Shown in pieces: positions 1 through 26,749 of a DNA stretch of 64,000 nt. This stretch comes from Salminus brasiliensis (lineage: Eukaryota; Chordata; Actinopteri; Characiformes; Bryconidae). The notes beneath the pieces were generated by a model. The model was not told the origin of the DNA, did no database searches, and saw only the letters and a list, made by a program, of their open reading frames with translations. The stretch is from positions 5,985,364 through 6,049,363 of the forward strand of contig NC_132901.1 in NCBI RefSeq assembly GCF_030463535.1, in the 5' to 3' direction. Made by a program: the position numbers and the translations under genes. How positions within the stretch are numbered: the first letter of the stretch is position 1; the number at the start of each line of letters is the position of its first letter.

Positions 1-35
1 GATGACACGCAAAATCGTGAAGCGTCCAATCTTTT
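1..35 (+). ncRNA. RNU6: U6 snRNA, 3' part only (cut by window edge)
   Basis: The window opens inside U6 at the GATGACACGC segment after the internal stem-loop. The gene ends with CTTTT at 31-35. It is in exact 1601-bp register with the copy at 1531. Confidence 0.95.
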
Positions 36-720
36 CCTCCTGGAATTAATAACGATCAAAAAATCTTTCTAGCAATCTTCCATTATGTATTTTCGGTTGG
101 CTGAGCTGCAGTTCATATACGTCACCAATAAGCGGCGCTCTAACACAGCACATGTTGCGTGCTCCGCTTTACCTACATCATTTTTCATTATAAAGGGCTT
201 CAGAAGAGTATAGTAATGCTTCAAAACAGAGAAATTTGAAAGCAGGATATTCAGGACTATCAGCGTGGACTTACACTTTGAGAGAAGTCACTTTAAAAAG
301 ACTAAAAGGTAAAAGAACACTCCATCGCTATAATAACTAGTATAGCGCTACAGAGGCAGGTCTGACAACACTAGACCGACCGAGGGTGCTGCGAAGACGG
401 TTAAAAGCAAATATCGGTGACGGCTGCAGAAGTTAGAAAAACAATGTTTTTTGGAACTCTGGGCGATTGCTGCAAACTGACGCGCAGTTAAATGTTGTGA
501 GCAAAACGATTTATTATTAAATTAAAGCTACATTTTTCTTTTTTTTCACCTGGTTGTTGTTCGAATCTTTCGTACCGTACTGTTCTCCCTACCTGATCGC
601 TGACCGCTACTTATTCATGCTCTTTACACTCTGTTTACGTACGAGATGCTGTTTACAAAACCAGACTGATCTGCGTTAGCATACGCTCCTGTACTCCCTG
701 TTTTACTCTTCCTTTCGGTG

Positions 721-780
721 CATTTACATTTACCACATTTAGTAGACGCTCTTATCCAAGGGCAACTTGGAAACGTGCTT
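721..780 (+). repeat. Fish interspersed-repeat fragment inside each U6 spacer
   Basis: The block beginning GCATTTACATTTACCACATT and running through TAGACGCTCTTATCCAAGGG resembles a very common teleost repeat core. It is present once per unit at the same offset (2322, 3923 and so on to 19925), so it was inside the ancestral unit before amplification. I cannot assign the repeat family. Confidence 0.55.
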
Positions 781-1280
781 TGCTATTTACCCTGGAATAA
801 CCGTAGCGAGTTTGAAATGACTAAAAATTCTTATATACTTCTAACCACAGATATTGTAAAACACAAGTCATTGCAATATTGTATGTCCTACCTATTCTGC
901 ACCAAAACCTTAGCCCATCTGTGTTTCGTTTTAATGTACAAAGCTGTATTAGTATAATGGAAATAAAATTTAATTGAGTTGTATGTTACTTGTCTGAACA
1001 AAATCTTGAATTTCTAATATGATTAACTTGTATTGGAAGTTAAGCCACGCAATGTAACCAAGGTTCAGACGTCCATATAATAATGATAATAATAATAACA
1101 AGCCAAAGAACCCAGCTAAAGAACAGTTACACGTTCATTTGTGAGTGGCTTCACATACTCCTTTAGGGGGTTTTGGGAAATTCTGGAAAATTAGGGAAGA
1201 TTCAAGAACTAGAAAGGAAGTATTTATCCTTATGAAGCTTTTGAGAAACTCATCCCTTGTTGAGGTGTCGAGGGTCAACA

Positions 1281-1303
1281 AACTGCATTTCTCCCAGAAT
1301 ACA
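1281..1303 (+). promoter_or_regulatory. Candidate distal sequence element (Staf/ZNF143-like plus octamer-like)
   Basis: At -250 to -228 from the U6 start, AACTGCAT (six of eight matches to the octamer ATTTGCAT) directly adjoins CTCCCAGAATACA, close to the Staf/ZNF143 core TTCCCAGAATGCA. Vertebrate snRNA enhancers sit at this distance and combine these two sites. The same block occurs in every unit and in the inverted copy at 26.96 kb. That conservation in the otherwise diverged copy supports function; factor binding is inferred. Confidence 0.65.
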
Positions 1304-1463
1304 CCTTGAGAAATCGAATTCAAGAAATGAAAGAAAGCCCTCAAAACTAATAAAGAAAGACATTAAAACTAATACCATTTACTTAGAATTTCGGAAATAA
1401 CTGCATAATGGTTTTATATGCCGTTTTGGGCCCTTTTGAGGTGAGAAGGTGGGATTGTGTGCA

Positions 1464-1507
1464 CTAACCATGATCTAGAAAAAAAGCAACTGGCCCAGGT
1501 ATATATG
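1464..1507 (+). promoter_or_regulatory. Type 3 Pol III core promoter of U6 (PSE plus TATA)
   Basis: A PSE, CTAACCATGATCTAGAAA and so on, occupies 1464-1483 (-67 to -48), and TATATATG begins at 1500 (-31). These positions and their 16-bp separation match vertebrate U6 promoters bound by SNAPc and TFIIIB. The same pair precedes every other array U6 at multiples of 1601 bp. The PSE reads GATGTAG before the copies at 4733, 7935 and 12738, and GATCTAG elsewhere. Confidence 0.9.
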
Positions 1508-1530
1508 CCAGACGTTTGGGCTCCCAGTTC

Positions 1531-1540
1531 GTGCTTGCTA

Positions 1541-1587
<47 letters not shown>

Positions 1588-1636
1588 GGCCCCTGCGCAA
1601 GGATGACACGCAAAATCGTGAAGCGTCCAATCTTTT
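1531..1636 (+). ncRNA. RNU6: U6 spliceosomal snRNA, array copy 1
   Basis: U6 is the catalytic snRNA of the major spliceosome, made by RNA polymerase III in the nucleus. This 106-nt gene shows the 5' stem-loop, the ATACAGAGA box that pairs with the 5' splice site, the AGC triad region, the internal stem-loop (CCCCTGCGCAAGG) and a TTTT terminator at 1633-1636. It differs from the usual vertebrate U6 in three ways: a UACG instead of UUCG apical loop, AAAATCG instead of AAATTCG, and a 3' end reading GTCCAATC instead of GTTCCATA. A PSE and TATA box sit at canonical distances upstream. Nothing in the sequence argues against function. Confidence 0.95.
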
Positions 1637-3131
1637 CCTCTTGGCATCAATAACGATCAAAAAATCTTTCTAGCAATCTTCCATTATGTATTTTCGGTTG
1701 GCTAAGCTGAAGTTCATATACGTCACCACTAAGCGGCGCTCTAACATAGTACATGTTGCGTGCTCCGCTTTACCTACATCATTTTTCATTATAAAGGGCT
1801 TCAGAAGAGTATAGTAATGCTTCAAAACAGAGAAATTTGAAAGCAGGATATTCAGGACTATCAGCGTGGACTTACACTTTGAGAGAAGACACTTTAAAAA
1901 GACTAAAAGGTAAAAGAACACTCCATCGCTATAATAACTAGTATAGCGCTACAGAGGCAGGTCTGACAACACTAGACCGACCGAGGGTGCTGCGAAGACG
2001 GTTAAAAGCAAATATCGGTGACGGCTGCAGAAGTTACAAAAACAATGTTTTTAGGAACTCTGGGCGATTGCTGCAAACTGACGCGCAGTTAAATGTTGTG
2101 AGCAAAACGATTTATTATTAAATTAAAGCTACATTTTTCTTTTTTTTCACCTGGTTGTTGTTCGAATCTTTCGTACCGTACTGTTCTCCCTACCTGATCG
2201 CTGACCGCTAGCTATTCATGCTCTTTACACTCTGTTTACGTACGAGATGCTGTTTACAAAACCAGACTGATCTGCGTTAGCATACGCTCCTGTACTCCCT
2301 GTTTTACTCTTCCTTTCGGTGCATTTACATTTACCACATTTAGTAGACGCTCTTATCCAAGGGCAACTTGGAAACGTGCTTTGCTATTTACCCTGGAATA
2401 ACCGTAGCGAGTTTGAAATGACTAAAAATTCTTATATACTTCTAACCACAGATATTGTAAAACACAAGTCATTGCAATATTGTATGTCCTACCTATTCTG
2501 CACCAAAACCTTAGCCCATCTGTGTTTCGTTTTAATGTACAAAGCTGTATTAGTATAATGGAAATAAAATTTAATTGAGTTGTATGTTACTTGTCTGAAC
2601 AAAATCTTGAATTTCTAATATGATTAACTTGTATTGGAAGTTAAGCCACGCAATGTAACCAAGGTTCAGACGTCCATATAATAATGATAATAATAATAAC
2701 AAGCCAAAGAACCCAGCTAAAGAACAGTTACACGTTCATTTATGAGTGGCTTCACATACTCCTTTAGGGGGTTTTGGGAAATTCTGGAAAATTAGGGAAG
2801 ATTCAAGAACTAGAAAGGAAGTATTTATCCTTATGAAGCTTTTGAGAAACTCACCCCTTGTTGAGGTGTCGAGGGTCAACAAACTGCATATCTCCCAGAA
2901 TACACCTTGAGAAATCGAATTCAAGAAATGAAAGAAAGCCCTCAAAACTAATAAAGAAAGACATTAAAACTAATACCATTTACTTAGAATTTCGGAAATA
3001 ACTGCATAATGGTTTTATATGCCGTTTTGGGCCCTTTTGAGGTAAGAAGGTGGGATTGTGTGCACTAACCATGATCTAGAAAAAAAGCAACTGGCCCAGG
3101 TATATATGCCAGACGTTTGGGCTCCCAGTTC

Positions 3132-3142
3132 GTGCTTGCTAA

Positions 3143-3188
<46 letters not shown>

Positions 3189-3237
3189 GGCCCCTGCGCA
3201 AGGATGACACGCAAAATCGTGAAGCGTCCAATCTTTT
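3132..3237 (+). ncRNA. RNU6: U6 snRNA, array copy 2 (loop variant)
   Basis: Same as copy 1 except C to A at 3142 (U6 position 11). The apical loop becomes UAAG and leaves the stable UNCG tetraloop family. The terminator TTTT is at 3234-3237, and promoter elements are intact. It could be a slightly impaired copy or an assembly error. Confidence 0.93.
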
Positions 3238-4732
3238 CCTCCTGGCATCAATAACGATCAAAAAATCTTTCTAGCAATCTTCCATTATGTATTTTCGGTT
3301 GGCTGAGCTGAACTTCATATACATCACCACTAAGCGGCGCTCTAACACAGCACATGTTGCGTGCTCCGCTTTACCTACATCATTTTTCATTATAAAGGGC
3401 TTCAGAAGAGTATAGTAATGCTTCAAAACAGAGAAATTTGAAAGCAGGATATTCAGGACTATCAGCGTGGACTTACACTTTGAGAGAAGTCACTTTAAAA
3501 AGACTAAAAGGTAAAAGAACACTCCATCGCTATAATAACTAGTATCGCGCTACAGCGGCAGGTCTGACAACACTAGACCGACCGAGGGTGCTGCGAAGAC
3601 GGTTAAAAGCAAATATCGGTGACGGCTGCAGAAGTTACAAAAACAATGTTTTTAGGAACTCTGGGCGATTGCTGCAAACTGACGCGCAGTTAAATGTTGT
3701 GAGCAAAACGATTTATTATCAAATTAAAGCTACATTTTTCTTTTTTTTCACCTGGTTGTTGTTCGAATCTTTCGTACCGTACTGTTCTCCCTACCTGATC
3801 GCTGACCGCTACTTATTCATGCTCTTTACACTCTGTTTACGTACGAGATGCTGTTTACAAAACCAGACTGATCTGCGTTAGCATACGCTCCTGTACTCCC
3901 TGTTTTACTCTTCCTTTCGGTGCATTTACATTTACCACATTTAGTAGACGCTCTTATCCAAGGGCAACTTGAAAAAGTGCTTTGCTATTTACTCTGGAAT
4001 AACCTTAGCGAGTTTGAAATGACTAAAAATTCATATATACTTCTAACCACAGATATTGTAAAACACAAGTCATTGCAATATTGTATGTCCTACCTATTAT
4101 GCACCAAAACCTTAGCCCATCTGTGTTTCGTTTTAATGTACAAAGCTGTATTAGTATAAAGGAAATAAAATTTAATTGAGTTGTATGTTACTTGTCTGAA
4201 CAAAATCTTGAATTTCTAATATGATTAACTTGTATTGGAAGTTAAGCCACGCAATGTAACCAAGGTTCAGGCGTCCATATAATAATGATAATAATAATAA
4301 CAAGCCAAAGAACCCAGCTAAAGAACAGTTACACGTTCATTTGTGAGTGGCTTCACATACTCCTTTAGGGGGTTTTGGGAAATTCTGGAAAATTAGGGAA
4401 GATTCAAGAACTAGAAAGGAAGTATTTATCCTTATGAAGCTTTTGAAAAACTCACCCCTTGTTGAGGTGTCGAGGGTCCAAAAACTGCATATCTCCCAGA
4501 ATACACCTTGAGAGGTCGAATTCAAGAAATGAAAGAAAGACCTTAAAACTATTAAAGAAAGACATTAAAACTAATACCATTTACTTAGAATTTCGGAAAT
4601 AACTGCATATTGGTTTTATATGCAGTTTTGGGCCCTTTTGAGGTGAGAAGGTGGGATTGTGTGCACTAACCATGATGTAGAAAAAAAGCAACTGGCCCAG
4701 GTATATATGCCAGACGTTTGGGCTCCCAGTTC

Positions 4733-4742
4733 GTGCTTGCTA

Positions 4743-4789
<47 letters not shown>

Positions 4790-4838
4790 GGCCCCTGCGC
4801 AAGGATGACACGCAAAATCGTGAAGCGTCCAATCTTTT
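4733..4838 (+). ncRNA. RNU6: U6 snRNA, array copy 3
   Basis: Sequence equals the array consensus. Its upstream PSE carries GATGTAG where most units have GATCTAG. The TTTT terminator is present. Confidence 0.95.
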
Positions 4839-6333
4839 CCTCCTGGAATTAATAACGATCAAAAAATCTTTCTAGCAATCTTCCATTATGTATTTTCGGT
4901 TGGCTGAGCTGCAGTTCATATACGTCACCACTAAGCGGCGCTCTAACACAGCACATGTTGCGTGCTCCGCTTTACCTACATCATTTTTCATTATAAAGGG
5001 CTTCAGAAGAGTATAGTAATGCTTCAAAACAGAGAAATTTGAAAGCAGGATATTCAGGACTATCAGCGTGGACTTACACTTTGAGAGAAGTCACTTTAAA
5101 AAGACTAAAAGGTAAAAGAACACTCCATCGCTATAATAACTAGTATAGCGCTACAGAGGCAGGTCTGACAACACTAGACCGACCGAGGGTGCTGCGAAGA
5201 CGGTTAAAAGCAAATATCGGTGACGGCTGCAGAAGTTACAAAAACAATGTTTTTAGGAACTCTGGGCGATTGCTGCAAACTGACGCGCAGTTAAATGTTG
5301 TGAGCAAAACGATTTATTATTAAATTAAAGCTACATTTTTCTTTTTTTTCACCTGGTTGTTGTTCGAATCTTTCGTACCGTACTGTTCTCCCTACCTGAT
5401 CGCTGACCGCTACTTATTCATGCTCTTTACACTCTGTTTACGTACGAGATGCTGTTTACAAAACCAGACTGATCTGCGTTAGCATACGCTCCTGTACTCC
5501 CTGTTTTACTCTTCCTTTCGGTGCATTTACATTTACCACATTTAGTAGACGCTCTTATCCAAGGGCAACTTGGAAACGTGCTTTGCTATTTACCCTGGAA
5601 TAACCGTAGCGAGTTTGAAATGACTAAAAATTCTTATATACTTCTAACCACAGATATTGTAAAACACAAGTCATTGCAATATTGTATGTCCTACCTATTC
5701 TGCACCAAAACCTTAGCCCATCTGTGTTTCGTTTTAATGTACAAAGCTGTATTAGTATAATGGAAATAAAATTTAATTGAGTTGTATGTTACTTGTCTGA
5801 ACAAAATCTTGAATTTCTAATATGATTAACTTGTATTGGAAGTTAAGCCACGCAATGTAACCAAGGTTCAGACGTCCATATAATAATGATAATAATAATA
5901 ACAAGCCAAAGAACCCAGCTAAAGAACAGTTACACGTTCATTTGTGAGTGGCTTCACATACTCCTTTAGGGGGTTTTGGGAAATTCTGGAAAATTAGGGA
6001 AGATTCAAGAACTAGAAAGGAAGTATTTATCCTTATGAAGCTTTTGAGAAACTCACCCCTTGTTGAGGTGTCGAGGGTCAACAAACTGCATATCTCCCAG
6101 AATACACCTTGAGAAATCGAATTCAAGAAATGAAAGAAAGCCCTCAAAACTAATAAAGAAAGACATTAAAACTAATACCATTTACTTAGAATTTCGGAAA
6201 TAACTGCATAATGGTTTTATATGCCGTTTTGGGCCCTTTTGAGGTAAGAAGGTGGGATTGTGTGCACTAACCATGATCTAGAAAAAAAGCAACTGGCCCA
6301 GGTATATATGCCAGACGTTTGGGCTCCCAGTTC

Positions 6334-6343
6334 GTGCTTGCTA

Positions 6344-6390
<47 letters not shown>

Positions 6391-6439
6391 GGCCCCTGCG
6401 CAAGGATGACACGCAAAATCGTGAAGCGTCCAATCTTTT
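6334..6439 (+). ncRNA. RNU6: U6 snRNA, array copy 4
   Basis: Consensus array U6 with intact PSE, TATA and TTTT end. Confidence 0.95.
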
Positions 6440-7934
6440 CCTCCTGGCATCAATAACGATCAAAAAATCTTTCTAGCAATCTTCCATTATGTATTTTCGG
6501 TTGGCTAAGCTGAAGTTCATATACGTCACCACTAAGCGGCGCTCTAACATAGTACATGTTGCGTGCTCCGCTTTACCTACATCATTTTTCATTATAAAGG
6601 GCTTCAGAAGAGTGTAGTAATGCTTCAACACAGAGAAATTTGAAAGCAGGATATTCAGGACTGTCAGCGTGGACTTACACTTTGAGAGAAGTCACTTTAA
6701 AAAGACTAAAAGGTGAAAGAACACTCCATCGCTATAATAACCAGTATCGCGCTACAGCGGCAGGTCTGACAACATTAGGCCGACCGAGGGTGCTGCGAAG
6801 ACGGTTAAAAGCATATATCGTTGACGGCTGCAGAAGTTACAAAAACAATGTTTTTAGGAACTCTGGGCGATTGCTGCGAACTGACGCGCAGGTAAATGTT
6901 GTGAGCAAAACGATTTATTATAAAATCAAAGCTACATTTTTCTTTTTTTTCACCTGGTTGTTGTTCGAATCTTTCGTACCGTACTGTTCTCCCTACCTGA
7001 TCGCTGGCTGCTACTTATTCATGCTCTTTACACTCTGTTTACGTACGAGATGCTGTTTACAAAACCAGACTGATCTGCGTTAGCATACGCTCCTGTACTC
7101 CCTGTTTTACTCTTCCTTTCGGTGCATTTACATTTACCACATTTAGTAGACGCTCTTATCCAAGGGCAACTTGAAAAAGTGCTTTGCTATTTACTCTGGA
7201 ATAACCTTAGCGAGTTTGAAATGACTAAAAATTCATATATACTTCTAACCACAGATATTGTAAAACACAAGTCATTGCAATATTGTATGTCCTACCTATT
7301 ATGCACCAAAACCTTAGCCCATCTGTGTTTCGTTTTAATGTACAAAGCTGTATTAGTATAAAGGAAATAAAATTTAATTGAGTTGTATGTTACTTGTCTG
7401 AACAAAATCTTGAATTTCTAATATGATTAACTTGTATTGGAAGTTAAGCCACGCAATGTAACCAAGGTTCAGGCGTCCATATAATAATGATAATAATAAT
7501 AACAAGCCAAAGAACCCAGCTAAAGAACAGTTACACGTTCATTTGTGAGTGGCTTCACATACTCCTTTAGGGGGTTTTGGGAAATTCTGGAAAATTAGGG
7601 AAGATTCAAGAACTAGAAAGGAAGTATTTATCCTTATGAAGCTTTTGAAAAACTCACCCCTTGTTGAGGTGTCGAGGGTCCAAAAACTGCATATCTCCCA
7701 GAATACACCTTGAGAGGTCGAATTCAAGAAATGAAAGAAAGACCTTAAAACTATTAAAGAAAGACATTAAAACTAATACCATTTACTTAGAATTTCGGAA
7801 ATAACTGCATATTGGTTTTATATGCAGTTTTGGGCCCTTTTGAGGTGAGAAGGTGGGATTGTGTGCACTAACCATGATGTAGAAAAAAAGCAACTGGCCC
7901 AGGTATATATGCCAGACGTTTGGGCTCCCAGTTC

Positions 7935-7944
7935 GTGCTTGCTA

Positions 7945-7991
<47 letters not shown>

Positions 7992-8040
7992 GGCCCCTGC
8001 GCAAGGATGACACGCAAAATCGTGAAGCGTCCAATCTTTT
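7935..8040 (+). ncRNA. RNU6: U6 snRNA, array copy 5
   Basis: Consensus array U6. Its upstream promoter carries the GATGTAG PSE variant shared with copies 3 and 8. Confidence 0.95.
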
Positions 8041-9535
8041 CCTCCTGGAATTAATAACGATCAAAAAATCTTTCTAGCAATCTTCCATTATGTATTTTCG
8101 GTTGGCTGAGCTGCAGTTCATATACGTCACCACTAAGCGGCGCTCTAACACAGCACATGTTGCGTGCTCCGCTTTACCTACATCATTTTTCATTATAAAG
8201 GGCTTCAGAAGAGTATAGTAATGCTTCAAAACAGAGAAATTTGAAAGCAGGATATTCAGGACTATCAGCGTGGACTTACACTTTGAGAGAAGTCACTTTA
8301 AAAAGACTAAAAGGTAAAAGAACACTCCATCGCTATAATAACTAGTATAGCGCTACAGAGGCAGGTCTGACAACACTAGACCGACCGAGGGTGCTGCGAA
8401 GACGGTTAAAAGCAAATATCGGTGACGGCTGCAGAAGTTACAAAAACAATGTTTTTTGGAACTCTGGGCGATTGCTGCAAACTGACGCGCAGTTAAATGT
8501 TGTGAGCAAAACGATTTATTATTAAATTAAAGCTACATTTTTCTTTTTTTTCACCTGGTTGTTGTTCGAATCTTTCGTACCGTACTGTTCTCCCTACCTG
8601 ATCGCTGACCGCTACTTATTCATGCTCTTTACACTCTGTTTACGTACGAGATGCTGTTTACAAAACCAGACTGATCTGCGTTAGCATACGCTCCTGTACT
8701 CCCTGTTTTACTCTTCCTTTCGGTGCATTTACATTTACCACATTTAGTAGACGCTCTTATCCAAGGGCAACTTGGAAACGTGCTTTGCTATTTACCCTGG
8801 AATAACCGTAGCGAGTTTGAAATGACTAAAAATTCTTATATACTTCTAACCACAGATATTGTAAAACACAAGTCATTGCAATATTGTATGTCCTACCTAT
8901 TCTGCACCAAAACCTTAGCCCATCTGTGTTTCGTTTTAATGTACAAAGCTGTATTAGTATAATGGAAATAAAATTTAATTGAGTTGTATGTTACTTGTCT
9001 GAACAAAATCTTGAATTTCTAATATGATTAACTTGTATTGGAAGTTAAGCCACGCAATGTAACCAAGGTTCAGACGTCCATATAATAATGATAATAATAA
9101 TAACAAGCCAAAGAACCCAGCTAAAGAACAGTTACACGTTCATTTGTGAGTGGCTTCACATACTCCTTTAGGGGGTTTTGGGAAATTCTGGAAAATTAGG
9201 GAAGATTCAAGAACTAGAAAGGAAGAATTTATCCTTATGAAGCTTTTGAGAAACTCATCCCTTGTTGAGGTGTCGAGGGTCAACAAACTGCATTTCTCCC
9301 AGAATACACCTTGAGAAATCGAATTCAAGAAATGAAAGAAAGCCCTCAAAACTAATAAAGAAAGACATTAAAACTAATACCATTTACTTAGAATTTCGGA
9401 AATAACTGCATAATGGTTTTATATGCCGTTTTGGGCCCTTTTGAGGTGAGAAGGTGGGATTGTGTGCACTAACCATGATCTAGAAAAAAAGCAACTGGCC
9501 CAGGTATATATGCCAGACGTTTGGGCTCCCAGTTC

Positions 9536-9545
9536 GTGCTTGCTA

Positions 9546-9592
<47 letters not shown>

Positions 9593-9641
9593 GGCCCCTG
9601 CGCAAGGATGACACGCAAAATCGTGAAGCGTCCAATCTTTT
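9536..9641 (+). ncRNA. RNU6: U6 snRNA, array copy 6
   Basis: Consensus array U6 with PSE, TATA and a four-T terminator. Confidence 0.95.
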
Positions 9642-11136
9642 CCTCCTGGCATCAATAACGATCAAAAAATCTTTCTAGCAATCTTCCATTATGTATTTTC
9701 GGTTGGCTAAGCTGAAGTTCATATACGTCACCACTAAGCGGCGCTCTAACATAGTACATGTTGCGTGCTCCGCTTTACCTACATCATTTTTCATTATAAA
9801 GGGCTTCAGAAGAGTATAGTAATGCTTCAAAACAGAGAAATTTGAAAGCAGGATATTCAGGACTATCAGCGTGGACTTACACTTTGAGAGAGGTCACTTT
9901 AAAAAGACTAAAAGGTAAAAGAACACTCCATCGCTATAATAACTAGTATAGCGCTACAGAGGCAGGTCTGACAACACTAGACCGACCGAGGGTGCTGCGA
10001 AGACGGTTAAAAGCAAATATCGGTGACGGCTGCAGAAGTTACAAAAACAATGTTTTTAGGAACTCTGGGCGATTGCTGCAAACTGACGCGCAGTTAAATG
10101 TTGTGAGCAAAACGATTTATTATTAAATTAAAGCTACATTTTTCTTTTTTTCCACCTGGTTGTTGTTCGAATCTTTCGTACCGTACTGTTCTCCCTACCT
10201 GATCGCTGACCGCTACTTATTCATGCTCTTTACACTCTGTTTACGTACGAGATGCTGTTTACAAAACCAGACTGATCTGCGTTAGCATACGCTCCTGTAC
10301 TCCCTGTTTTACTCTTTCTTTCGGTGCATTTACATTTACCACATTTAGTAGACGCTCTTATCCAAGGGCAACTTGGAAACGTGCTTTGCTATTTACCCTG
10401 GAATAACCGTAGCGAGTTTGAAATGACTAAAAATTCTTATATACTTCTAACCACAGATATTGTAAAACACAAGTCATTGCAATATTGTATGTCCTACCTA
10501 TTCTGCACCAAAACCTTAGCCCATCTGTGTTTCGTTTTAATGTACAAAGCTGTATTAGTATAATGGAAATAAAATTTAATTGAGTTGTATGTTACTTGTC
10601 TGAACAAAATCTTGAATTTCTAATATGATTAACTTGTATTGGAAGTTAAGCCACGCAATGTAACCAAGGTTCAGACGTCCATATAATAATGATAATAATA
10701 ATAACAAGCCAAAGAACCCAGCTAAAGAACAGTTACACGTTCATTTGTGAGTGGCTTCACATACTCCTTTAGGGGGTTTTGGGAAATTCTGGAAAATTAG
10801 GGAAGATTCAAGAACTAGAAAGGAAGTATTTATCCTTATGAAGCTTTTGAGAAACTCACCCCTTGTTGAGGTGTCGAGGGTCAACAAACTGCATATCTCC
10901 CAGAATACACCTTGAGAAATCGAATTCAAGAAATGAAAGAAAGCCCTCAAAACTAATAAAGAAAGACATTAAAACTAATACCATTTACTTAGAATTTCGG
11001 AAATAACTGCATAATGGTTTTATATGCCGTTTTGGGCCCTTTTGAGGTAAGAAGGTGGGATTGTGTGCACTAACCATGATCTAGAAAAAAAGCAACTGGC
11101 CCAGGTATATATGCCAGACGTTTGGGCTCCCAGTTC

Positions 11137-11146
11137 GTGCTTGCTA

Positions 11147-11193
<47 letters not shown>

Positions 11194-11242
11194 GGCCCCT
11201 GCGCAAGGATGACACGCAAAATCGTGAAGCGTCCAATCTTTT
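11137..11242 (+). ncRNA. RNU6: U6 snRNA, array copy 7
   Basis: Consensus array U6 with PSE, TATA and a four-T terminator. The spacer that follows is of the subtype also found after copy 11. Confidence 0.95.
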
Positions 11243-12737
11243 CCTCCTGGCATCAATAACGATCAAAAAATCTTTCTAGCAATCTTCCATTATGTATTTT
11301 CGGTTGGCTAAGCTGAAGTTCATATACGTCACCACTAAGCGGCGCTCTAACATAGTACATGTTGCGTGCTCCGCTTTACCTACATCATTTTTCATAATAA
11401 AGGGCTTCAGAAGAGTGTAGTAATGCTTCAACACAGAGAAATTTGAAAGCAGGATATTCAGGACTGTCAGCGTGGACTTACACTTTGAGAGAAGTCACTT
11501 TAAAAAGACTAAAAGGTGAAAGAACACTCCATCGCTATAATAACCAGTATCGCGCTACAGCGGCAGGTCTGACAACATTAGGCCGACCGAGGGTGCTGCG
11601 AAGACGGTTAAAAGCATATATCGTTGACGGCTGCAGAAGTTACAAAAACAATGTTTTTAGGAACTCTGGGCGATTGCTGCGAACTGACGCGCAGGTAAAT
11701 GTTGTGAGCAAAACGATTTATTATAAAATCAAAGCTACATTTTTCTTTTTTTTCACCTGGTTGTTGTTCGAATCTTTCGTACCGTACTGTTCTCCCTACC
11801 TGATCGCTGGCTGCTACTTATTCATGCTCTTTACACTCTGTTTACGTACGAGATGCTGTTTACAAAACCAGACTGATCTGCGTTAGCATACGCTCCTGTA
11901 CTCCCTGTTTTACTCTTCCTTTCGGTGCATTTACATTTACCACATTTAGTAGACGCTCTTATCCAAGGGCAACTTGGAAACGTGCTTTGCTATTTACCCT
12001 GGAATAACCGTAGCGAGTTTGAAATGACTAAAAATTCATATATACTTCTAACCACAGATATTGTAAAACACAAGTCATTGCAATATTGTATGTCCTACCT
12101 ATTCTGCACCAAAACCTTAGCCCATCTGTGTTTCGTTTTAATGTACAAAGCTGTATTAGTATAATGGAAATAAAATTTAATTGAGTTGTATGTTACTTGA
12201 CTGAACAAAATCTTGAATTTCTAATATGATTAACTTGTATTGGAAGTTAAGCCACGCAATGTAACCAAGGTTCAGACGTCCATATAATAATGATAATAAT
12301 AATAACAAGCCAAAGAACCCAGCTAAAGAACAGTTACACGTTCATTTATGAGTGGCTTCACATACTCCTTTAGGGGGTTTTGGGAAATTCTGGAAAATTA
12401 GGGAAGATTCAAGAACTAGAAAGGAAGTATTTATCCTTATGAAGCTTTTGAGAAACTCACCCCTTGTTGAGGTGTCGAGGGTCAACAAACTGCATATCTC
12501 CCAGAATACACCTTGAGAAATCGAATTCAAGAAATGAAAGAAAGACCTTAAAACTATTAAAGAAAGACATTAAAACTAATACCATTTACTTAGAATTTCG
12601 GAAATAACTGCATATTGGTTTTATATGCAGTTTTGGGCCCTTTTGAGGTGAGAAGGTGGGATTGTGTGCACTAACCATGATGTAGAAAAAAAGCAACTGG
12701 CCCAGGTATATATGCCAGACGTTTGGGCTCCCAGTTC

Positions 12738-12747
12738 GTGCATGCTA

Positions 12748-12794
<47 letters not shown>

Positions 12795-12843
12795 GGCCCC
12801 TGCGCAAGGATGACACGCAAAATCGTGAAGCGTCCAATCTTTT
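12738..12843 (+). ncRNA. RNU6: U6 snRNA, array copy 8 (5' stem variant)
   Basis: T to A at 12742 (U6 position 5), which removes the U5-A15 pair of the 5' stem-loop. The neighbouring bulged U6 residue could pair with A15 instead, moving the bulge by one. The rest is consensus and the terminator is intact. Confidence 0.93.
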
Positions 12844-14338
12844 CCTCCTGGAATTAATAACGAACAAAAAATCTTTCTAGCAATCTTCCATTATGTATTT
12901 TCGGTTGGCTGAGCTGCAGTTCATATACGTCACCACTAAGCGGCGCTCTAACACAGCACATGTTGCGTGCTCCGCTTTACCTACATCATTTTTCATTATA
13001 AAGGGCTTCAGAAGAGTATAGTAATGCTTCAAAACAGAGAAATTTGAAAGCAGGATATTCAGGACTATCAGCGTGGACTTACACTTTGAGAGAAGTCACT
13101 TTAAAAAGACTAAAAGGTAAAAGAACACTCCATCGCTATAATAACTAGTATAGCGCTACAGAGGCAGGTCTGACAACACTAGACCGACCGAGGGTGCTGC
13201 GAAGACGGTTAAAAGCAAATATCGGTGACGGCTGCAGAAGTTAGAAAAACAATGTTTTTTGGAACTCTGGGCGATTGCTGCAAACTGACGCGCAGTTAAA
13301 TGTTGTGAGCAAAACGATTTATTATTAAATTAAAGCTACATTTTTCTTTTTTTTCACCTGGTTGTTGTTCGAATCTTTCGTGCCGTACTGTTCTCCCTAC
13401 CTGATCGCTGACCGCTACTTATTCATGCTCTTTACACTCTGTTTACGTACGAGATGCTGTTTACAAAACCAGACTGATCTGCGTTAGCATACGCTCCTGT
13501 ACTCCCTGTTTTACTCTTCCTTTCGGTGCATTTACATTTACCACATTTAGTAGACGCTCTTATCCAAGGGCAACTTGGAAACGTGCTTTGCTATTTACCC
13601 TGGAATAACCGTAGCGAGTTTGAAATGACTAAAAATTCTTATATACTTCTAACCACAGATATTGTAAAACACAAGTCATTGCAATATTGTATGTCCTACC
13701 TATTCTGCACCAAAACCTTAGCCCATCTGTGTTTCGTTTTAATGTACAAAGCTGTATTAGTATAATGGAAATAAAATTTAATTGAGTTGTATGTTACTTG
13801 TCTGAACAAAATCTTGAATTTCTAATATGATTAACTTGTATTGGAAGTTAAGCCACGCAATGTAACCAAGGTTCAGACGTCCATATAATAATGATAATAA
13901 TAATAACAAGCCAAAGAACCCAGCTAAAGAACAGTTACACGTTCATTTGTGAGTGGCTTCACATACTCCTTTAGGGGGTTTTGGGAAATTCTGGAAAATT
14001 AGGGAAGATTCAAGAACTAGAAAGGAAGTATTTATCCTTATGAAGCTTTTGAGAAACTCACCCCTTGTTGAGGTGTCGAGGGTCAACAAACTGCATATCT
14101 CCCAGAATACACCTTGAGAAATCGAATTCAAGAAATGAAAGAAAGCCCTCAAAACTAATAAAGAAAGACATTAAAACTAATACCATTTACTTAGAATTTC
14201 GGAAATAACTGCATAATGGTTTTATATGCCGTTTTGGGCCCTTTTGAGGTAAGAAGGTGGGATTGTGTGCACTAACCATGATCTAGAAAAAAAGCAACTG
14301 GCCCAGGTATATATGCCAGACGTTTGGGCTCCCAGTTC

Positions 14339-14348
14339 GTGCTTGCTA

Positions 14349-14395
<47 letters not shown>

Positions 14396-14444
14396 GGCCC
14401 CTGCGCAAGGATGACACGCAAAATCGTGAAGCGTCCAATCTTTT
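14339..14444 (+). ncRNA. RNU6: U6 snRNA, array copy 9
   Basis: Consensus array U6 with intact promoter and terminator. Confidence 0.95.
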
Positions 14445-15939
14445 CCTCCTGGAATTAATAACGATCAAAAAATCTTTCTAGCAATCTTCCATTATGTATT
14501 TTCGGTTGGCTGAGCTGCAGTTCATATACGTCACCAATAAGCGGCGCTCTAACACAGCACATGTTGCGTGCTCCGCTTTACCTACATCATTTTTCATTAT
14601 AAAGGGCTTCAGAAGAGTATAGTAATGCTTCAAAACAGAGAAATTTGAAAGCAGGATATTCAGGACTATCAGCGTGGACTTACACTTTGAGAGAAGTCAC
14701 TTTAAAAAGACTAAAAGGTAAAAGAACACTCCATCGCTATAATAACTAGTATAGCGCTACAGAGGCAGGTCTGACAACACTAGACCGACCGAGGGTGCTG
14801 CGAAGACGGTTAAAAGCAAATATCGGTGACGGCTGCAGAAGTTAGAAAAACAATGTTTTTTGGAACTCTGGGCGATTGCTGCAAACTGACGCGCAGTTAA
14901 ATGTTGTGAGCAAAACGATTTATTATTAAATTAAAGCTACATTTTTCTTTTTTTTCACCTGGTTGTTGTTCGAATCTTTCGTACCGTACTGTTCTCCCTA
15001 CCTGATCGCTGACCGCTACTTATTCATGCTCTTTACACTCTGTTTACGTACGAGATGCTGTTTACAAAACCAGACTGATCTGCGTTAGCATACGCTCCTG
15101 TACTCCCTGTTTTACTCTTCCTTTCGGTGCATTTACATTTACCACATTTAGTAGACGCTCTTATCCAAGGGCAACTTGGAAACGTGCTTTGCTATTTACC
15201 CTGGAATAACCGTAGCGAGTTTGAAATGACTAAAAATTCTTATATACTTCTAACCACAGATATTGTAAAACACAAGTCATTGCAATATTGTATGTCCTAC
15301 CTATTCTGCACCAAAACCTTAGCCCATCTGTGTTTCGTTTTAATGTACAAAGCTGTATTAGTATAATGGAAATAAAATTTAATTGAGTTGTATGTTACTT
15401 GTCTGAACAAAATCTTGAATTTCTAATATGATTAACTTGTATTGGAAGTTAAGCCACGCAATGTAACCAAGGTTCAGACGTCCATATAATAATGATAATA
15501 ATAATAACAAGCCAAAGAACCCAGCTAAAGAACAGTTACACGTTCATTTGTGAGTGGCTTCACATACTCCTTTAGGGGGTTTTGGGAAATTCTGGAAAAT
15601 TAGGGAAGATTCAAGAACTAGAAAGGAAGTATTTATCCTTATGAAGCTTTTGAGAAACTCACCCCTTGTTGAGGTGTCGAGGGTCAACAAACTGCATTTC
15701 TCCCAGAATACACCTTGAGAAATCGAATTCAAGAAATGAAAGAAAGCCCTCAAAACTAATAAAGAAAGACATTAAAACTAATACCATTTACTTAGAATTT
15801 CGGAAATAACTGCATAATGGTTTTATATGCCGTTTTGGGCCCTTTTGAGGTGAGAAGGTGGGATTGTGTGCACTAACCATGATCTAGAAAAAAAGCAACT
15901 GGCCCAGGTATATATGCCAGACGTTTGGGCTCCCAGTTC

Positions 15940-15949
15940 GTGCTTGCTA

Positions 15950-15996
<47 letters not shown>

Positions 15997-16045
15997 GGCC
16001 CCTGCGCAAGGATGACACGCAAAATCGTGAAGCGTCCAATCTTTT
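15940..16045 (+). ncRNA. RNU6: U6 snRNA, array copy 10
   Basis: Consensus array U6 with intact promoter and terminator. The following spacer shares the AGAGAGGTCAC variant with the unit after copy 6, four units away. Confidence 0.95.
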
Positions 16046-17540
16046 CCTCCTGGCATCAATAACGATCAAAAAATCTTTCTAGCAATCTTCCATTATGTAT
16101 TTTCGGTTGGCTAAGCTGAAGTTCATATACGTCACCACTAAGCGGCGCTCTAACATAGTACATGTTGCGTGCTCCGCTTTACCTACATCATTTTTCATTA
16201 TAAAGGGCTTCAGAAGAGTATAGTAATGCTTCAAAACAGAGAAATTTGAAAGCAGGATATTCAGGACTATCAGCGTGGACTTACACTTTGAGAGAGGTCA
16301 CTTTAAAAAGACTAAAAGGTAAAAGAACACTCCATCGCTATAATAACTAGTATAGCGCTACAGAGGCAGGTCTGACAACACTAGACCGACCGAGGGTGCT
16401 GCGAAGACGGTTAAAAGCAAATATCGGTGACGGCTGCAGAAGTTACAAAAACAATGTTTTTAGGAACTCTGGGCGATTGCTGCAAACTGACGCGCAGTTA
16501 AATGTTGTGAGCAAAACGATTTATTATTAAATTAAAGCTACATTTTTCTTTTTTTTCACCTGGTTGTTGTTCGAATCTTTCGTACCGTACTGTTCTCCCT
16601 ACCTGATCGCTGACCGCTACTTATTCATGCTCTTTACACTCTGTTTACGTACGAGATGCTGTTTACAAAACCAGACTGATCTGCGTTAGCATACGCTCCT
16701 GTACTCCCTGTTTTACTCTTCCTTTCGGTGCATTTACATTTACCACATTTAGTAGACGCTCTTATCCAAGGGCAACTTGGAAACGTGCTTTGCTATTTAC
16801 CCTGGAATAACCGTAGCGAGTTTGAAATGACTAAAAATTCTTATATACTTCTAACCACAGATATTGTAAAACACAAGTCATTGCAATATTGTATGTCCTA
16901 CCTATTCTGCACCAAAACCTTAGCCCATCTGTGTTTCGTTTTAATGTACAAAGCTGTATTAGTATAATGGAAATAAAATTTAATTGAGTTGTATGTTACT
17001 TGTCTGAACAAAATCTTGAATTTCTAATATGATTAACTTGTATTGGAAGTTAAGCCACGCAATGTAACCAAGGTTCAGACGTCCATATAATAATGATAAT
17101 AATAATAACAAGCCAAAGAACCCAGCTAAAGAACAGTTACACGTTCATTTGTGAGTGGCTTCACATACTCCTTTAGGGGGTTTTGGGAAATTCTGGAAAA
17201 TTAGGGAAGATTCAAGAACTAGAAAGGAAGTATTTATCCTTATGAAGCTTTTGAGAAACTCACCCCTTGTTGAGGTGTCGAGGGTCAACAAACTGCATAT
17301 CTCCCAGAATACACCTTGAGAAATCGAATTCAAGAAATGAAAGAAAGCCCTCAAAACTAATAAAGAAAGACATTAAAACTAATACCATTTACTTAGAATT
17401 TCGGAAATAACTGCATAATGGTTTTATATGCCGTTTTGGGCCCTTTTGAGGTAAGAAGGTGGGATTGTGTGCACTAACCATGATCTAGAAAAAAAGCAAC
17501 TGGCCCAGGTATATATGCCAGACGTTTGGGCTCCCAGTTC

Positions 17541-17550
17541 GTGCTTGCTA

Positions 17551-17597
<47 letters not shown>

Positions 17598-17646
17598 GGC
17601 CCCTGCGCAAGGATGACACGCAAAATCGTGAAGCGTCCAATCTTTT
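17541..17646 (+). ncRNA. RNU6: U6 snRNA, array copy 11
   Basis: Consensus U6 and the last copy in exact 1601-bp register. The unit that follows has a small deletion near 18,585 and is diverged in its second half. Confidence 0.95.
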
Positions 17647-19136
17647 CCTCCTGGCATCAATAACGATCAAAAAATCTTTCTAGCAATCTTCCATTATGTA
17701 TTTTCGGTTGGCTAAGCTGAAGTTCATATACGTCACCACTAAGCGGCGCTCTAACATAGTACATGTTGCGTGCTCCGCTTTACCTACATCATTTTTCATA
17801 ATAAAGGGCTTCAGAAGAGTGTAGTAATGCTTCAACACAGAGAAATTTGAAAGCAGGATATTCAGGACTGTCAGCGTGGACTTACACTTTGAGAGAAGTC
17901 ACTTTAAAAAGACTAAAAGGTGAAAGAACACTCCATCGCTATAATAACCAGTATCGCGCTACAGCGGCAGGTCTGACAACATTAGGCCGACCGAGGGTGC
18001 TGCGAAGACGGTTAAAAGCATATATCGTTGACGGCTGCAGAAGTTACAAAAACAATGTTTTTAGGAACTCTGGGCGATTGCTGCGAACTGACGCGCAGGT
18101 AAATGTTGTGAGCAAAACGATTTATTATAAAATCAAAGCTACATTTTTCTTTTTTTTCACCTGGTTGTTGTTCGAATCTTTCGTACCGTACTGTTCTCCC
18201 TACCTGATCGCTGGCTGCTACTTATTCATGCTCTTTACACTCTGTTTACGTACGAGATGCTGTTTACAAAACCAGACTGATCTGCGTTAGCATACGCTCC
18301 TGTACTCCCTGTTTTACTCTTCCTTTCGGTGCATTTACATTTACCACATTTAGTAGACGCTCTTATCCAAGGGCAACTTGGAAACGTGCTTTGCTATTTA
18401 CCCTGGAATAACCGTAGCGAGTTTGAAATGACTAAAAATTCATATATACTTCTAACCACAGATATTGTAAAACACAAGTCATTGCAATATTGTATGTCCT
18501 ACCTATTCTGCACCAAAACCTTAGCCCATCTGTGTTTCGTTTTAATGTACAAAGCTGTATTAGTATAATGGAAATAAAATTTAATGTATGTTACTTGTCT
18601 GAACAAAATCTTGAATTTCTAATATGATTAACTTGTATTGGAAGTTAAGCCACGCAATGTAACCAAGGTTCAGACATCCATATAATAATGATAATAATAA
18701 TAACAAGCCAAAGAACCCAGCTAAAGAACAGTTACACGTTCATTTTTGAGTGGCTTCACATACTCCTTTAGGGGGTTTTGGGAAATTCTGGAAAATTAGG
18801 GAAGATTCAAGAACTAGAAATGAATGTATTTGTCCTTATGAAGCTTTTGAGAACCTCACCCCTTGTTGAGGTGTCCAGGGTCCACAAACTGCATATCTCC
18901 CAGAATACACCTTAAGAGGTCGTATTCAAGAAATGAAAGAAAGACCTTAAAACTATTAAAGGAAGATATTAAAACTAATACCATTTACTTAGAATTTCGG
19001 AAATAACTGCATAATGGTTTTATATGCAGTTTGGGGCCCTTTTGAGGTAAGAAGGTGGGATTGTGTGCACTAACCATGATCTAGAAAAAAAGCAACTGGC
19101 CCAGGTATATATGCCAGACGTTTGGGCTCCCAGTTC

Positions 19137-19146
19137 GTGTTTGCTA

Positions 19147-19193
<47 letters not shown>

Positions 19194-19242
19194 GGCCCCT
19201 GCGCAAGGATGACACGCAAAATCGTGAAGCGTCCAATCTTTT
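19137..19242 (+). ncRNA. RNU6: U6 snRNA, array copy 12 (5' stem variant)
   Basis: C to T at 19140 (U6 position 4), converting a C-G pair of the 5' stem to U-G. The remainder is consensus with a TTTT end at 19239-19242. PSE (19070-19089) and TATA are intact. Confidence 0.93.
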
Positions 19243-20735
19243 CCTCCTGGCATCAATAACGATCAAAAAATCTTTCTAGCAATCTTCCATTATGTATTTT
19301 CGGTTGGCTGAGCTGAAGTTCATATCCGTCACCACTAAGCGGCGCTCTAACACAGCACATGTTGCGTGCTCCGCTTTACCTACATCATTTTTCATTATAA
19401 AGGGCTTCAGAAGAGTGTAGTAATGCTTCAACACAGAGAAATTTAAAAGCAGGATATTCAGGACTGTCAGCGTGGACTTACATTTTGAGAGAAGTCACTT
19501 TAAAAAGACTAAAAGGTAAAAGAACACTCCATCGCTATAATAACTGGTATCGCGCTACAACGGCAGGTCTGACAACACTAGACCGACCGAGGGTGCTGTG
19601 AAGACGTTTAAAAGCAAATATCGGTAGCGGCTGCAGAAGTTACAAAAACAATGTGTTTAGGAACTCTGGGCGATTGCTGCGAACTGACGCGCAGTTAAAT
19701 GTTGTGAGCAAAACGATTTATTATCAAATTAAAGCTACATTTTTTTTTTTCACCTGGTTGTTGTTCGAATCTTTCGTACCGTACTGTTCTCCCTACCTGA
19801 CCGCTGGCTGCTACTTATTCATGCTCTTTACACTCTGTTTACGTACGAGATGCTGTTTACAAACCCAGACTGATCTGCGTTAGCATACGCCCCTGTACTC
19901 CCTGTTTTACTCTTCCTTTCGGTGCATTTACATTTACCACATTTAGTAGACGCTCTTATCCAAGGGCAACTTGGAAAAGTGCTTTGCTATTTACTCTGGA
20001 ATAACCTTAGCGAGTTTGAAATGACTACAAATTCATATATACTTCTAACCACAGATATTGTAAAACACAAGTCATTGCAATATTGTATGTCCTACCTATT
20101 CTGCACCAAAACCTTAGCCCATCTGTGTTTCGTTTTAATGTACAAAGCTGTATTAGTATAATGGAAATAAAATTTAATTGAGTTGTATGTTACTTGTCTG
20201 AACAAAATCTTGAATTTCTAATATGATTAACTTGTATTGGAAGTTAAACCACGCAATGTAACCAAGGTTCAGGCGTCCATATAATAATGATAATAATAAT
20301 AACAAGCCAAAGAACCCAGCTAAAGAACAGTTACACGTTCATTTGTGAGTGGCTTCACATACTCCTTTAGGGGGTTTTGGGAAATTCTGGAAAATTAGGG
20401 AAGATTCAAGAACTAGAAATGAATGTATTTGTCCTTATGAAGCTTTTGAGAACCTCACCCCTTGTTGAGGTGTCCAGGGTCCACAAACTGCATATCTCCC
20501 AGAATACACCTTAAGAGGTCGTATTCAAGAAATGAAAGAAAGACCTTAAAACTATTAAAGGAAGACATTAAAACTAATACCATTTACTTAGAATTTCGGA
20601 AATAACTGCATAATGGTTTTATATGCAGTTTGGGGCCCTTTTGAGGTAAGAAGGTGGGATTGTGTGCACTAACCATGATCTAGAAAAAAAGCAACTGGCC
20701 CAGGTATATATGCCAGACGTTTGGGCTCCCAGTTC

Positions 20736-20745
20736 GTGCTTGCTA

Positions 20746-20792
<47 letters not shown>

Positions 20793-20840
20793 GGCCCCTG
20801 CGCAAGGATGACACGCAAAATCGTGAAGCGTCCATCTCTT
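20736..20840 (+). ncRNA. RNU6: U6 snRNA, last array copy with degraded terminator
   Basis: The first roughly 97 nt are consensus and the promoter is intact, but the 3' end reads CCATCTCTTCC, so no run of four T follows. The next TTTT on this strand is near 20,906, so a Pol III transcript would run about 70 nt past the normal end. This is probably a decaying copy at the array edge; it could be a U6 pseudogene. Confidence 0.85.
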
Positions 20841-21140
20841 CCTCCTGGTACCAATAACGATCAAAAAATGCCCAAAACATCTTTCTAGCAATCTTCCATT
20901 ATGTATTTTCTGTTGGCTGATCTGAAGTTCATATACGTCACCACTAAGCACTCTAGTATCGAGCTACAGCGGCAGGTCTGACAACACTAGTTCGACCGAG
21001 GTTGCTGCGAATGCGGTTTGAAGCAAATATCGGTCGTGGCTGCAGAAGTTACAGCAACAATGTGTTTAGTAACTCTGGGCACTTGCTGTGAACTGACTCG
21101 CAGTTAAATGTTGTGAGCAAAACGATTTATTATAAAATTA
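20841..21140 (+). repeat. Truncated, diverged terminal U6 spacer
   Basis: Homology to the array spacer continues with many substitutions. There is an insertion AATGCCCAAAAC near 20,867 and loss of roughly 200 bp after 20,948, where CACTAAGC jumps to the CTCTAGTATCG block. Homology fades near 21,140 in an AT-rich stretch. The insertion and TTTTCTGTTGG are shared with the inverted copy at 26.6 kb. Confidence 0.8.
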
Positions 21141-21164
21141 AAGCAACAATTTTAACTACAGTGC

Positions 21165-26095: not shown

Positions 26096-26653
26096 ACTAG
26101 TGTAAATGCAAAACTTTAATTAGCTTCGTTTTTTTCCATTCCACCTTAACTGGAGCAGACACATTTAAGGTGGAACAAAAGATTCGAACAAATTCCTGGT
26201 GAATAAAAAGATAAAAAAGTAAAAAATGTATAATAGATTGGTTTTATCACAACATTTAACTGCGTGTCAGTTCACAACAAGCGCCCAGAGTACCTAAACA
26301 CATGGTTCCTGCAGCCGCGACCAATATTTGCTTCTAACCGTCGATGGTTTAGTCTTTTTAAAGTGACTTCTCTCAAAGTTTGGGTCTACATTGACAGTCC
26401 TGAAGCTCCTACTTATTTTTATGTTTCCCTGTTTTGACGCATTACTAGACTCTTCTCGCCCTTTATAATGAAGAATTATGTAGGTAAAGAGGAGCACGCA
26501 ACATGTGCTGTGTTAAAGCGCCACTTAGTGGTTAACTATTTGAACTTCGTATATGACGTATACGAACTTCAGCTCAGCCAACAGAAAATACATAATTGAA
26601 GATTGCTAGAAAGATTTTTTGGGCATTTTTTGATCGTTATTGATGCCAGAAGG

Positions 26654-26702: not shown

Positions 26703-26749
<47 letters not shown>

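What the first reader, a model, noticed from the sequence alone, without database searches (positions are those of the whole stretch)
1..21140. Regular 1601-bp tandem array of complete U6 snRNA genes
Vertebrate U6 genes are usually dispersed or loosely clustered among many pseudogenes. Here at least 13 U6 genes, nearly all with intact promoter and terminator, repeat head to tail with an invariant 1601-bp period over 11 intervals, like 5S rDNA. Fixed length implies recent amplification or ongoing homogenisation. The array also runs off the left edge, so its true size is unknown. It may be a major U6 locus of this species.
Basis: partly seen in the sequence, partly recalled or inferred. Interest (0 to 1): 0.85.

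Follow-up and report, generated by a model that had tools for sequence, protein, structure and literature searches.

The report
Homogenised tandem array of U6 genes
A probable fish chromosome carries at least thirteen near-identical copies of the gene for U6, an RNA at the heart of the splicing machinery, lined up head to tail and apparently swapping sequence with each other, with an inverted sister copy nearby; such arrays are a known kind, but the U6 made here has an unusual sequence worth testing.

Summary
There are 13 complete U6 genes in one orientation plus the last 36 bp of another at the left edge. Of 12 start-to-start intervals 10 are 1601 bp, then 1596 and 1599; the edge fragment adds an eleventh 1601. 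All 13 have a TATA box and an SPH-like distal element; 10 of 13 share one PSE-like string, 3 of 13 carry one C-to-G change in it; 12 of 13 have a TTTT terminator.

Its gene is identical (0 of 107 differences) although 97 of 574 aligned flank bases differ. Most likely these are real Pol III genes.

Units are mosaics: 464 of 1596 informative site pairs fail the four-gamete test, rarely under 100 bp (8 of 269) and often far apart (186 of 437 at 900 bp or more). This points to sequence exchange, not mere duplication.

Multi-copy U6 in fish is not new ("U6 arrays", PMC3706591; 460 of 706 zebrafish U6 in one chr4 region, PMC3392230; passages). The U6 is unusual (UACG tetraloop). Whether it is an oocyte type or the main U6 is untested; the genome search did not complete.

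The parts
1..36 (+). 3' end of a further U6 gene, cut by the window edge
   Evidence: identical to the last 36 bases of the array gene
37..1637 (+). array unit u1: spacer, promoter and U6 gene (U6 1531-1637)
1638..3238 (+). array unit u2 (U6 3132-3238, loop change C11A)
3239..4839 (+). array unit u3 (U6 4733-4839; PSE variant at -56)
4840..6440 (+). array unit u4 (U6 6334-6440), used as reference unit
6441..8041 (+). array unit u5 (U6 7935-8041; PSE variant at -56)
8042..9642 (+). array unit u6 (U6 9536-9642)
9643..11243 (+). array unit u7 (U6 11137-11243)
11244..12844 (+). array unit u8 (U6 12738-12844, stem change U5A; PSE variant at -56)
12845..14445 (+). array unit u9 (U6 14339-14445)
14446..16046 (+). 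array unit u10 (U6 15940-16046); 1 difference from u1
16047..17647 (+). array unit u11 (U6 17541-17647)
17648..19243 (+). array unit u12, 1596 bp (U6 19137-19243, stem change C4U)
19244..20841 (+). array unit u13, the right-hand end unit (U6 match 20736-20842, TTTT terminator lost)
   Evidence: 20 singleton columns, the most of any unit
20842..21153 (+). truncated spacer after the last gene: unit positions 1-97 and 301-501, 84-88% identical to the array
   Evidence: direct repeats D2 and D3
6086..6109 (+). example of the SPH-like (ZNF143/Staf-like) distal element, -248 to -225 of the U6 at 6334; its core string starts at -240 in all 13 genes
   Evidence: core string found in 13 of 13 array genes and in the inverted copy; conserved window; name recalled
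6266..6290 (+). example of the PSE-like element, -68 to -44 of the U6 at 6334
   Evidence: name recalled
6303..6309 (+). example of the TATA box, -31 to -25 of the U6 at 6334
   Evidence: 13 of 13 array genes and the inverted copy
6436..6439 (+). example of the TTTT terminator of the U6 at 6334
   Evidence: 12 of 13 array genes and the inverted copy
26653..26759 (-). inverted U6 gene, identical to the common array gene over 107 bases, with TATA, PSE-like, SPH-like elements and TTTT
26172..27001 (-). region of the inverted copy homologous to the array unit, with gaps (unit positions 21-270, 360-540, 1231-1275 and 1369-1601)
   Evidence: inverted repeats I1-I10

Best explanation
This is a multi-copy locus of working U6 snRNA genes. 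Each 1601-bp unit is one Pol III type 3 gene (SPH-like distal element, PSE, TATA, 106-nt U6 body ending in TTTT) and a non-genic spacer. An ancestral U6 with about 0.25 kb of upstream and 0.5 kb of downstream sequence existed in at least two copies here. One copy, together with extra spacer, was amplified head to tail, and the units are kept alike by unequal crossing-over and/or gene conversion. Selection on the U6 RNA and its promoter keeps most copies usable, while the end copy decays. SHOWN from sequence: the array, the exact gene identity with the inverted copy, the conserved promoter elements, the mosaic units. INFERRED: transcription, selection as the cause of the gene identity, the contribution to the U6 pool, and the order of events.
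For: U6 covariance matches in 14 places. 9 of 13 array genes and the inverted copy are identical. Array u4 against the inverted copy: 0 of 107 differences in the gene, 97 of 574 in aligned flanks, Fisher p 2.9e-8, gap columns left out. Within the 270 bp of 5' flank aligned, 20-column windows with at least 18 matches to the inverted copy start only at -248 to -243, -73 to -59 and -38 to -20, i.e. at the SPH-like, PSE and TATA/start regions. 103 variable columns of 1602. 464 of 1596 biallelic informative pairs violate the four-gamete test, at least 5 exchange intervals (Rm); violations 8 of 269 below 100 bp and 186 of 437 at 900 bp or more; with site order shuffled, Rm was 16 or more in 500 of 500 trials, so the variants lie in blocks (57 sites used, 3 of the 60 informative columns dropped for gaps or more than two states). 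u1 and u10, nine units apart, differ at 1 column. None of 60 shared variants lies in the gene while 5 of 43 singletons do (p 0.011, chosen after seeing the data).
Against: No expression data. Within the array the gene is not detectably less variable than the rest (5 of 107 variable columns against 98 of 1495, p 0.54), so selection on single copies is not visible inside the array. Conversion restricted to the gene could also give identity with the inverted copy. Repeated mutation at a site could mimic some four-gamete violations. The terminator is only 4 T long. The exact octamer was not found. 4 of 13 genes carry changes in the gene body or terminator.
Confidence: 0.82

Rival explanations
1. 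The array is an oocyte (maternal) type U6 locus, distinct in sequence and developmental timing from a somatic U6 elsewhere, as reported for zebrafish chromosome 4. (This would refine the best explanation, not replace it.)
For: Maternal-specific U1 and U6 genes lie in large numbers on zebrafish chr4, with somatic forms elsewhere (PMC11075544, passages). The array U6 differs from the recalled human U6 at 6 of 106 compared positions, including the tetraloop, while keeping the core. U6 is described as identical in all mammals and conserved into lizards and birds (PMC4476161, passages).
Against: No 5S, U1 or tRNA gene reaches the Rfam cut-off anywhere in the 64 kb, unlike the mixed zebrafish region. 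The zebrafish maternal U6 sequence could not be read (preprint not held). This species' other U6 genes are unknown.
Confidence: 0.3
2. A recent burst of duplication by replication slippage or rolling-circle events without continuing exchange.
For: High identity (mean difference 1.4% among the first 11 units, 1.9% among all 13) and a fixed period.
Against: Four-gamete violations that grow with distance need exchange between already diverged units. Among the first 11 units similarity does not fall with distance along the array; over all 13 only lags 11 and 12, which involve the end units, are clearly less alike.
Confidence: 0.1
3. A satellite-like array in which U6 is a passenger and mostly silent.
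For: Gene and spacer are about equally variable within the array; the copy at 20736 has lost its terminator.
Against: Gene identical to a copy whose flanks have diverged by about 17%; promoter elements conserved between the two; 12 of 13 keep TTTT.
Confidence: 0.08
4. Assembly artefact: copies inflated or reads mis-stacked.
For: u1 and u10 differ at one column, u7 and u11 at two; the array continues off the window edge.
Against: 103 variable columns, indels in the last two units, and a graded right-hand end (decayed last gene, truncated spacer, then unrelated sequence) look like a real array. The exact copy number may still be wrong.
Confidence: 0.07

Closest known systems
U6 arrays of fish (salmon, medaka, stickleback) mentioned as places of Dada-U6 transposons (PMC3706591; passages read)
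   Same: Several U6 genes together in a fish genome
   Different: No unit length, spacer or homogenisation is given in the passages read; no Dada-sized interruption here, since every complete interval is 1596-1601 bp
Zebrafish chr4 heterochromatic U6/U1 genes (PMC3392230; PMC11075544; passages read)
   Same: Many U6 copies concentrated in one region
   Different: There mixed with U1, 5S, tRNA and zinc-finger genes; here only U6 reaches Rfam cut-off in 64 kb. The oocyte role there is reported from a cited preprint; here it is unknown
Human RNU2 (U2) tandem array (PMC3795722; seen only in search listings with the start of the abstract)
   Same: Tandem snRNA gene repeat; the paper contains the term 'concerted evolution'
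   Different: U2 is a Pol II gene (recalled)
5S rDNA arrays
   Same: Pol III gene, head-to-tail, fixed unit, exchange between units (recalled)
   Different: 5S has an internal promoter (recalled); U6 here has an upstream one
Xenopus tropicalis U6 genes with SPH/PSE/TATA promoters (recalled; the 1987 paper is not held)
   Same: Promoter plan, as far as recalled
   Different: Genomic arrangement not checked; one genome survey kept only five full-length copies there as probably active (PMC4476161, passages)

Membership tests
Vertebrate-type U6 snRNA gene (Pol III type 3) | U6 RNA by covariance model, full length | tested here: met
   14 of 14 matches full length, at least 104.7 bits against a gathering score of 44
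Vertebrate-type U6 snRNA gene (Pol III type 3) | Unchanged core (ACAGAGA, AGC, internal stem-loop) | tested here: met
   u4 agrees with the upper-case consensus positions through this part; no difference from recalled human U6 between positions 11 and 84
Vertebrate-type U6 snRNA gene (Pol III type 3) | TATA near -30, PSE near -65, distal element near -240 | tested here: met
   TATA 13 of 13, SPH-like core 13 of 13, PSE string exact in 10 of 13 with one shared base change in 3; element names and usual places recalled; binding not tested
Vertebrate-type U6 snRNA gene (Pol III type 3) | Exact octamer in the distal element | tested here: not met
   none of 13 array genes, nor the inverted copy, has it within 300 bp; not strictly defining, as SPH alone can serve (recalled)
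Vertebrate-type U6 snRNA gene (Pol III type 3) | T-run terminator | tested here: met
   12 of 13 array genes and the inverted copy; not in the gene at 20736
Vertebrate-type U6 snRNA gene (Pol III type 3) | Transcribed into U6 RNA | not testable with these tools
   no expression data
Concertedly evolving tandem gene array (5S or RNU2 kind) | Head-to-tail units of near-fixed length | tested here: met
   10 of 12 intervals 1601 bp, others 1596 and 1599
Concertedly evolving tandem gene array (5S or RNU2 kind) | Exchange between units | tested here: met
   four-gamete and distance test
Concertedly evolving tandem gene array (5S or RNU2 kind) | Units closer within the species than to other species | not testable with these tools
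   no other fish genome on hand; units differ from each other by at most 3.7%, but by about 17% in aligned flanks from the inverted copy
Oocyte-type (maternal) U6 of zebrafish chr4 | Linked with maternal 5S, U1 or tRNA genes | tested here: not met
   Rfam cut-off matches in 64 kb are all U6; the wider region is unseen
Oocyte-type (maternal) U6 of zebrafish chr4 | Oocyte-only expression; sequence differing from the somatic U6 of the same species | not testable with these tools
   genome search unanswered (and nine before it); no expression data
Processed U6 pseudogene | No upstream promoter, dispersed | tested here: not met
   promoter elements present in all 13 array genes and in the inverted copy

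The most novel reading that the evidence does not exclude
The locus makes a second, structurally distinct U6 (UNCG-type tetraloop kept as UACG, a stronger predicted 3' stem), kept separate from the ordinary vertebrate U6 by array homogenisation and used in a particular tissue such as the oocyte; a natural C-to-G change in the PSE of 3 of 13 copies would make copy-specific promoter strength measurable.
Probability: 0.27. Interest if true: 0.6.

Novelty: new member of a known kind. Interest (0 to 1): 0.36.

Why it matters
It gives a sequence-level view of how an essential spliceosomal RNA gene is kept uniform: mosaic units with shared spacer blocks, an end unit that seems to have escaped homogenisation, and a diverged sister locus whose gene is still identical. 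The sister copy also works as a footprint that singles out the three promoter elements without any outside genome. If the UACG form proves to be a separate developmental type, the locus would be a clean case for testing whether fish have two U6 pools.

Tried and rejected
Other RNA genes in the spacer: a permissive search of one unit (u4) found, besides U6, only a weak UnaL2 LINE-tail match on the minus strand at 5532-5586 (25.1 bits against a gathering score of 55, E 0.063), so a retroelement tail at most. A permissive scan of the whole window listed 23 matches: the 14 U6 and 9 below their gathering scores (8 microRNA-family rows, 1 SCARNA7), mostly at or near simple TA repeats.

Dada-U6 insertion in the array: rejected, no interval is longer than 1601 bp.

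Simple neighbour-by-neighbour duplication: no fall of similarity with distance among the first 11 units.

Identifying the species: not achieved. The window holds a stretch close to the first PTB domain of FE65/APBB1, which fits an animal but does not name it. An 81-base array U6 pattern had no exact match in viral contigs (0 found). A 15-base piece of the variant 5' stem-loop, TTGCTACGGCAGCAC, occurs in none of the papers held, in this exact form; a piece of the variant 3' part occurs in 2 papers, on a crab and on Schistosoma (listing only). Two recalled primers matching ordinary vertebrate U6 occur together with the word zebrafish in 69 papers, 6 listed, 2 of those on other fish species (listing only); this does not say what U6 those fish have.

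Protein searches: ORFs 47639-48673 and 33914-34366 gave no Pfam match above cut-off and no PDB match; 38488-38778 gave none in either. 19 ORF stretches in all went to Pfam; only the RVT_1 and PID matches passed their cut-offs, the other weak rows were taken as chance. The long open frames that recur in the spacer were not searched.

Rows left out before counts: gap columns; 3 of 60 informative columns.
Full report
Observation. At curated cut-offs Rfam finds 14 full-length U6 sequences in the window and no other family. Thirteen lie on the + strand, starting at 1531, 3132, 4733, 6334, 7935, 9536, 11137, 12738, 14339, 15940, 17541, 19137 and 20736: ten intervals of 1601 bp, then 1596 and 1599. 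Bases 1-36 are the end of one more gene. Unit-length homology ends with the gene at 20736, followed by a truncated spacer to 21153. With E-values of 3.5e-26 or better, chance plays no part.

A missed inverted copy. A fourteenth U6 lies at 26653-26759 on the minus strand. Its surroundings match the unit in four pieces at 76-90% (the best piece includes the gene). Between the array and this copy lies about 5 kb of other sequence, including a reverse-transcriptase fragment at 23581-24006 (-). Comparing the two loci, the gene shows 0 of 107 differences, while the aligned flanks show 97 of 574, gaps not counted (Fisher p 2.9e-8). Selection on the RNA is the simplest cause; gene conversion limited to the gene is the alternative.

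Promoters. In the 270 bp of 5' flank aligned, windows of 20 columns with at least 18 matches between array unit u4 and the inverted copy start only at -248 to -243, -73 to -59 and -38 to -20. These coincide with an SPH-like element, a PSE-like element and the TATA/start region of vertebrate U6 promoters (names and usual positions recalled). Across the 13 array genes the TATA and SPH-like core strings are found in 13; the PSE-like string is unchanged in 10 and has the same C-to-G change at -56 in 3. No exact octamer was found within 300 bp in any of the 14 genes. TTTT at gene position 103-106 is present in 12 of 13 and in the inverted copy; the gene at 20736 has its first run of four T only at position 171.

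How the units evolve. The 13 units differ at 103 of 1602 alignment columns; pairs differ at 1 to 59 columns. Of 57 biallelic informative sites, 464 of 1596 pairs show all four combinations; for the first 11 units, 266 of 1176 (49 sites). Violations rise with distance, from 8 of 269 under 100 bp to 186 of 437 at 900 bp or more (first 11: 0 of 171 to 82 of 289). The minimum number of exchange intervals is 5 (4 for the first 11), against 16 or more (10 or more) when site order is shuffled 500 times, so the variants lie in contiguous blocks. Together these point to exchange in tracts; repeated mutation alone would not depend on distance. Among the first 11 units similarity does not fall with distance along the array; over all 13, lags 11 and 12 are less alike because they involve the end units. 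u13 at the edge has the most private columns (20), as expected when the end takes less part in exchange.

Against a simple picture of selection: within the array the gene is about as variable as the rest (5 of 107 columns against 98 of 1495, p 0.54). All five changes are private to one unit, while 60 of the 98 outside are shared (p 0.011; this comparison was chosen after seeing the data). So changes in the gene arise but are not seen to have spread.

The RNA. Compared with recalled human U6 there are six differences in 106 compared positions: 6, 10, 85, 97, 99 and 102. Position 10 changes the tetraloop from UUCG to UACG, which keeps the UNCG pattern (recalled as a stable class); the predicted 5' stem-loop energy is similar (-10.4 against -9.5 kcal/mol). 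The 3' stretch folds into the same shape with lower energy (-9.7 against -5.9); both come from short pieces folded on their own. The A at position 85 agrees with the Rfam consensus line. Single-copy changes at positions 11, 5 and 4 affect the loop or stem of the 5' hairpin; predicted energies -9.6, -10.4 and -8.0.

What is known. For fish, 'U6 arrays' appear in the Dada paper (PMC3706591, passages). Zebrafish has 706 counted U6, 460 in the chr4 heterochromatic region (PMC3392230, passages), and the chr4 ones are reported as maternal-specific (PMC11075544, passages, citing a preprint I could not read). A characid shows U6 on one chromosome pair (PMC8056886, passages). In hake an incomplete antisense U6 lies in a U1-U2 spacer (PMC4696792, passages). 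U6 is described as identical in all mammals and conserved into lizards and birds (PMC4476161, passages). A Xenopus paper treats snRNAs as tandem-repeat genes but maps only U1 and U2 (PMC10361878, passages). In their listings I saw no title or abstract start describing a 1.6-kb U6 repeat in a fish, but several listings were capped, the library lacks most subscription papers, and I read only passages of seven papers.

Verdict. A real, homogenised tandem array of probably working U6 genes, with an inverted sister gene. It is a good example of a known kind. Size, expression, species and any developmental role stay open because the genome search did not complete (and nine earlier) and no expression data exist here.

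Noticed in passing
window 23581-24006 (-): Reverse-transcriptase fragment (Pfam RVT_1, E 7e-17), probably a decayed LTR retrotransposon, between the array and the inverted U6.
   Followed up: partly
window 62414-62752 (-): Exon-like ORF matching the first PTB domain of FE65/APBB1 (Pfam PID E 2e-11; PDB 3d8d E 1.1e-19 over 51 residues).
   Followed up: partly
window 47639-48673 (+): 345-residue open frame without any Pfam match above cut-off or PDB match; may be an exon of an unidentified gene.
   Followed up: partly
window 46763-47539 (+): Two open frames that look like a decayed Tc1-type transposase (first one weak, Pfam HTH_Tnp_Tc3_2 E 0.0074 below cut-off; second had no Pfam match and is so called by eye only).
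   Followed up: partly
window 40645-40989 (+): Open frame with a weak, below cut-off match to the CARP1/2 FYVE finger (E 0.0011).
   Followed up: no
window 1330-1374 and the same place in every unit: About two copies of a 22-bp repeat between the distal and proximal promoter elements in all 13 units; the inverted copy has a gap there in the alignment.
   Followed up: partly
window 5532-5586 (-): Weak match to the UnaL2 LINE 3' tail inside the spacer of unit u4, perhaps a retroelement remnant fixed in the unit; the other units were not searched for it at this setting one by one.
   Followed up: no
window 20842-20880: The sequence just after the last array gene shares a short stretch with the inverted copy that the interior units seen lack, as if the array end keeps an older state.
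   Followed up: partly
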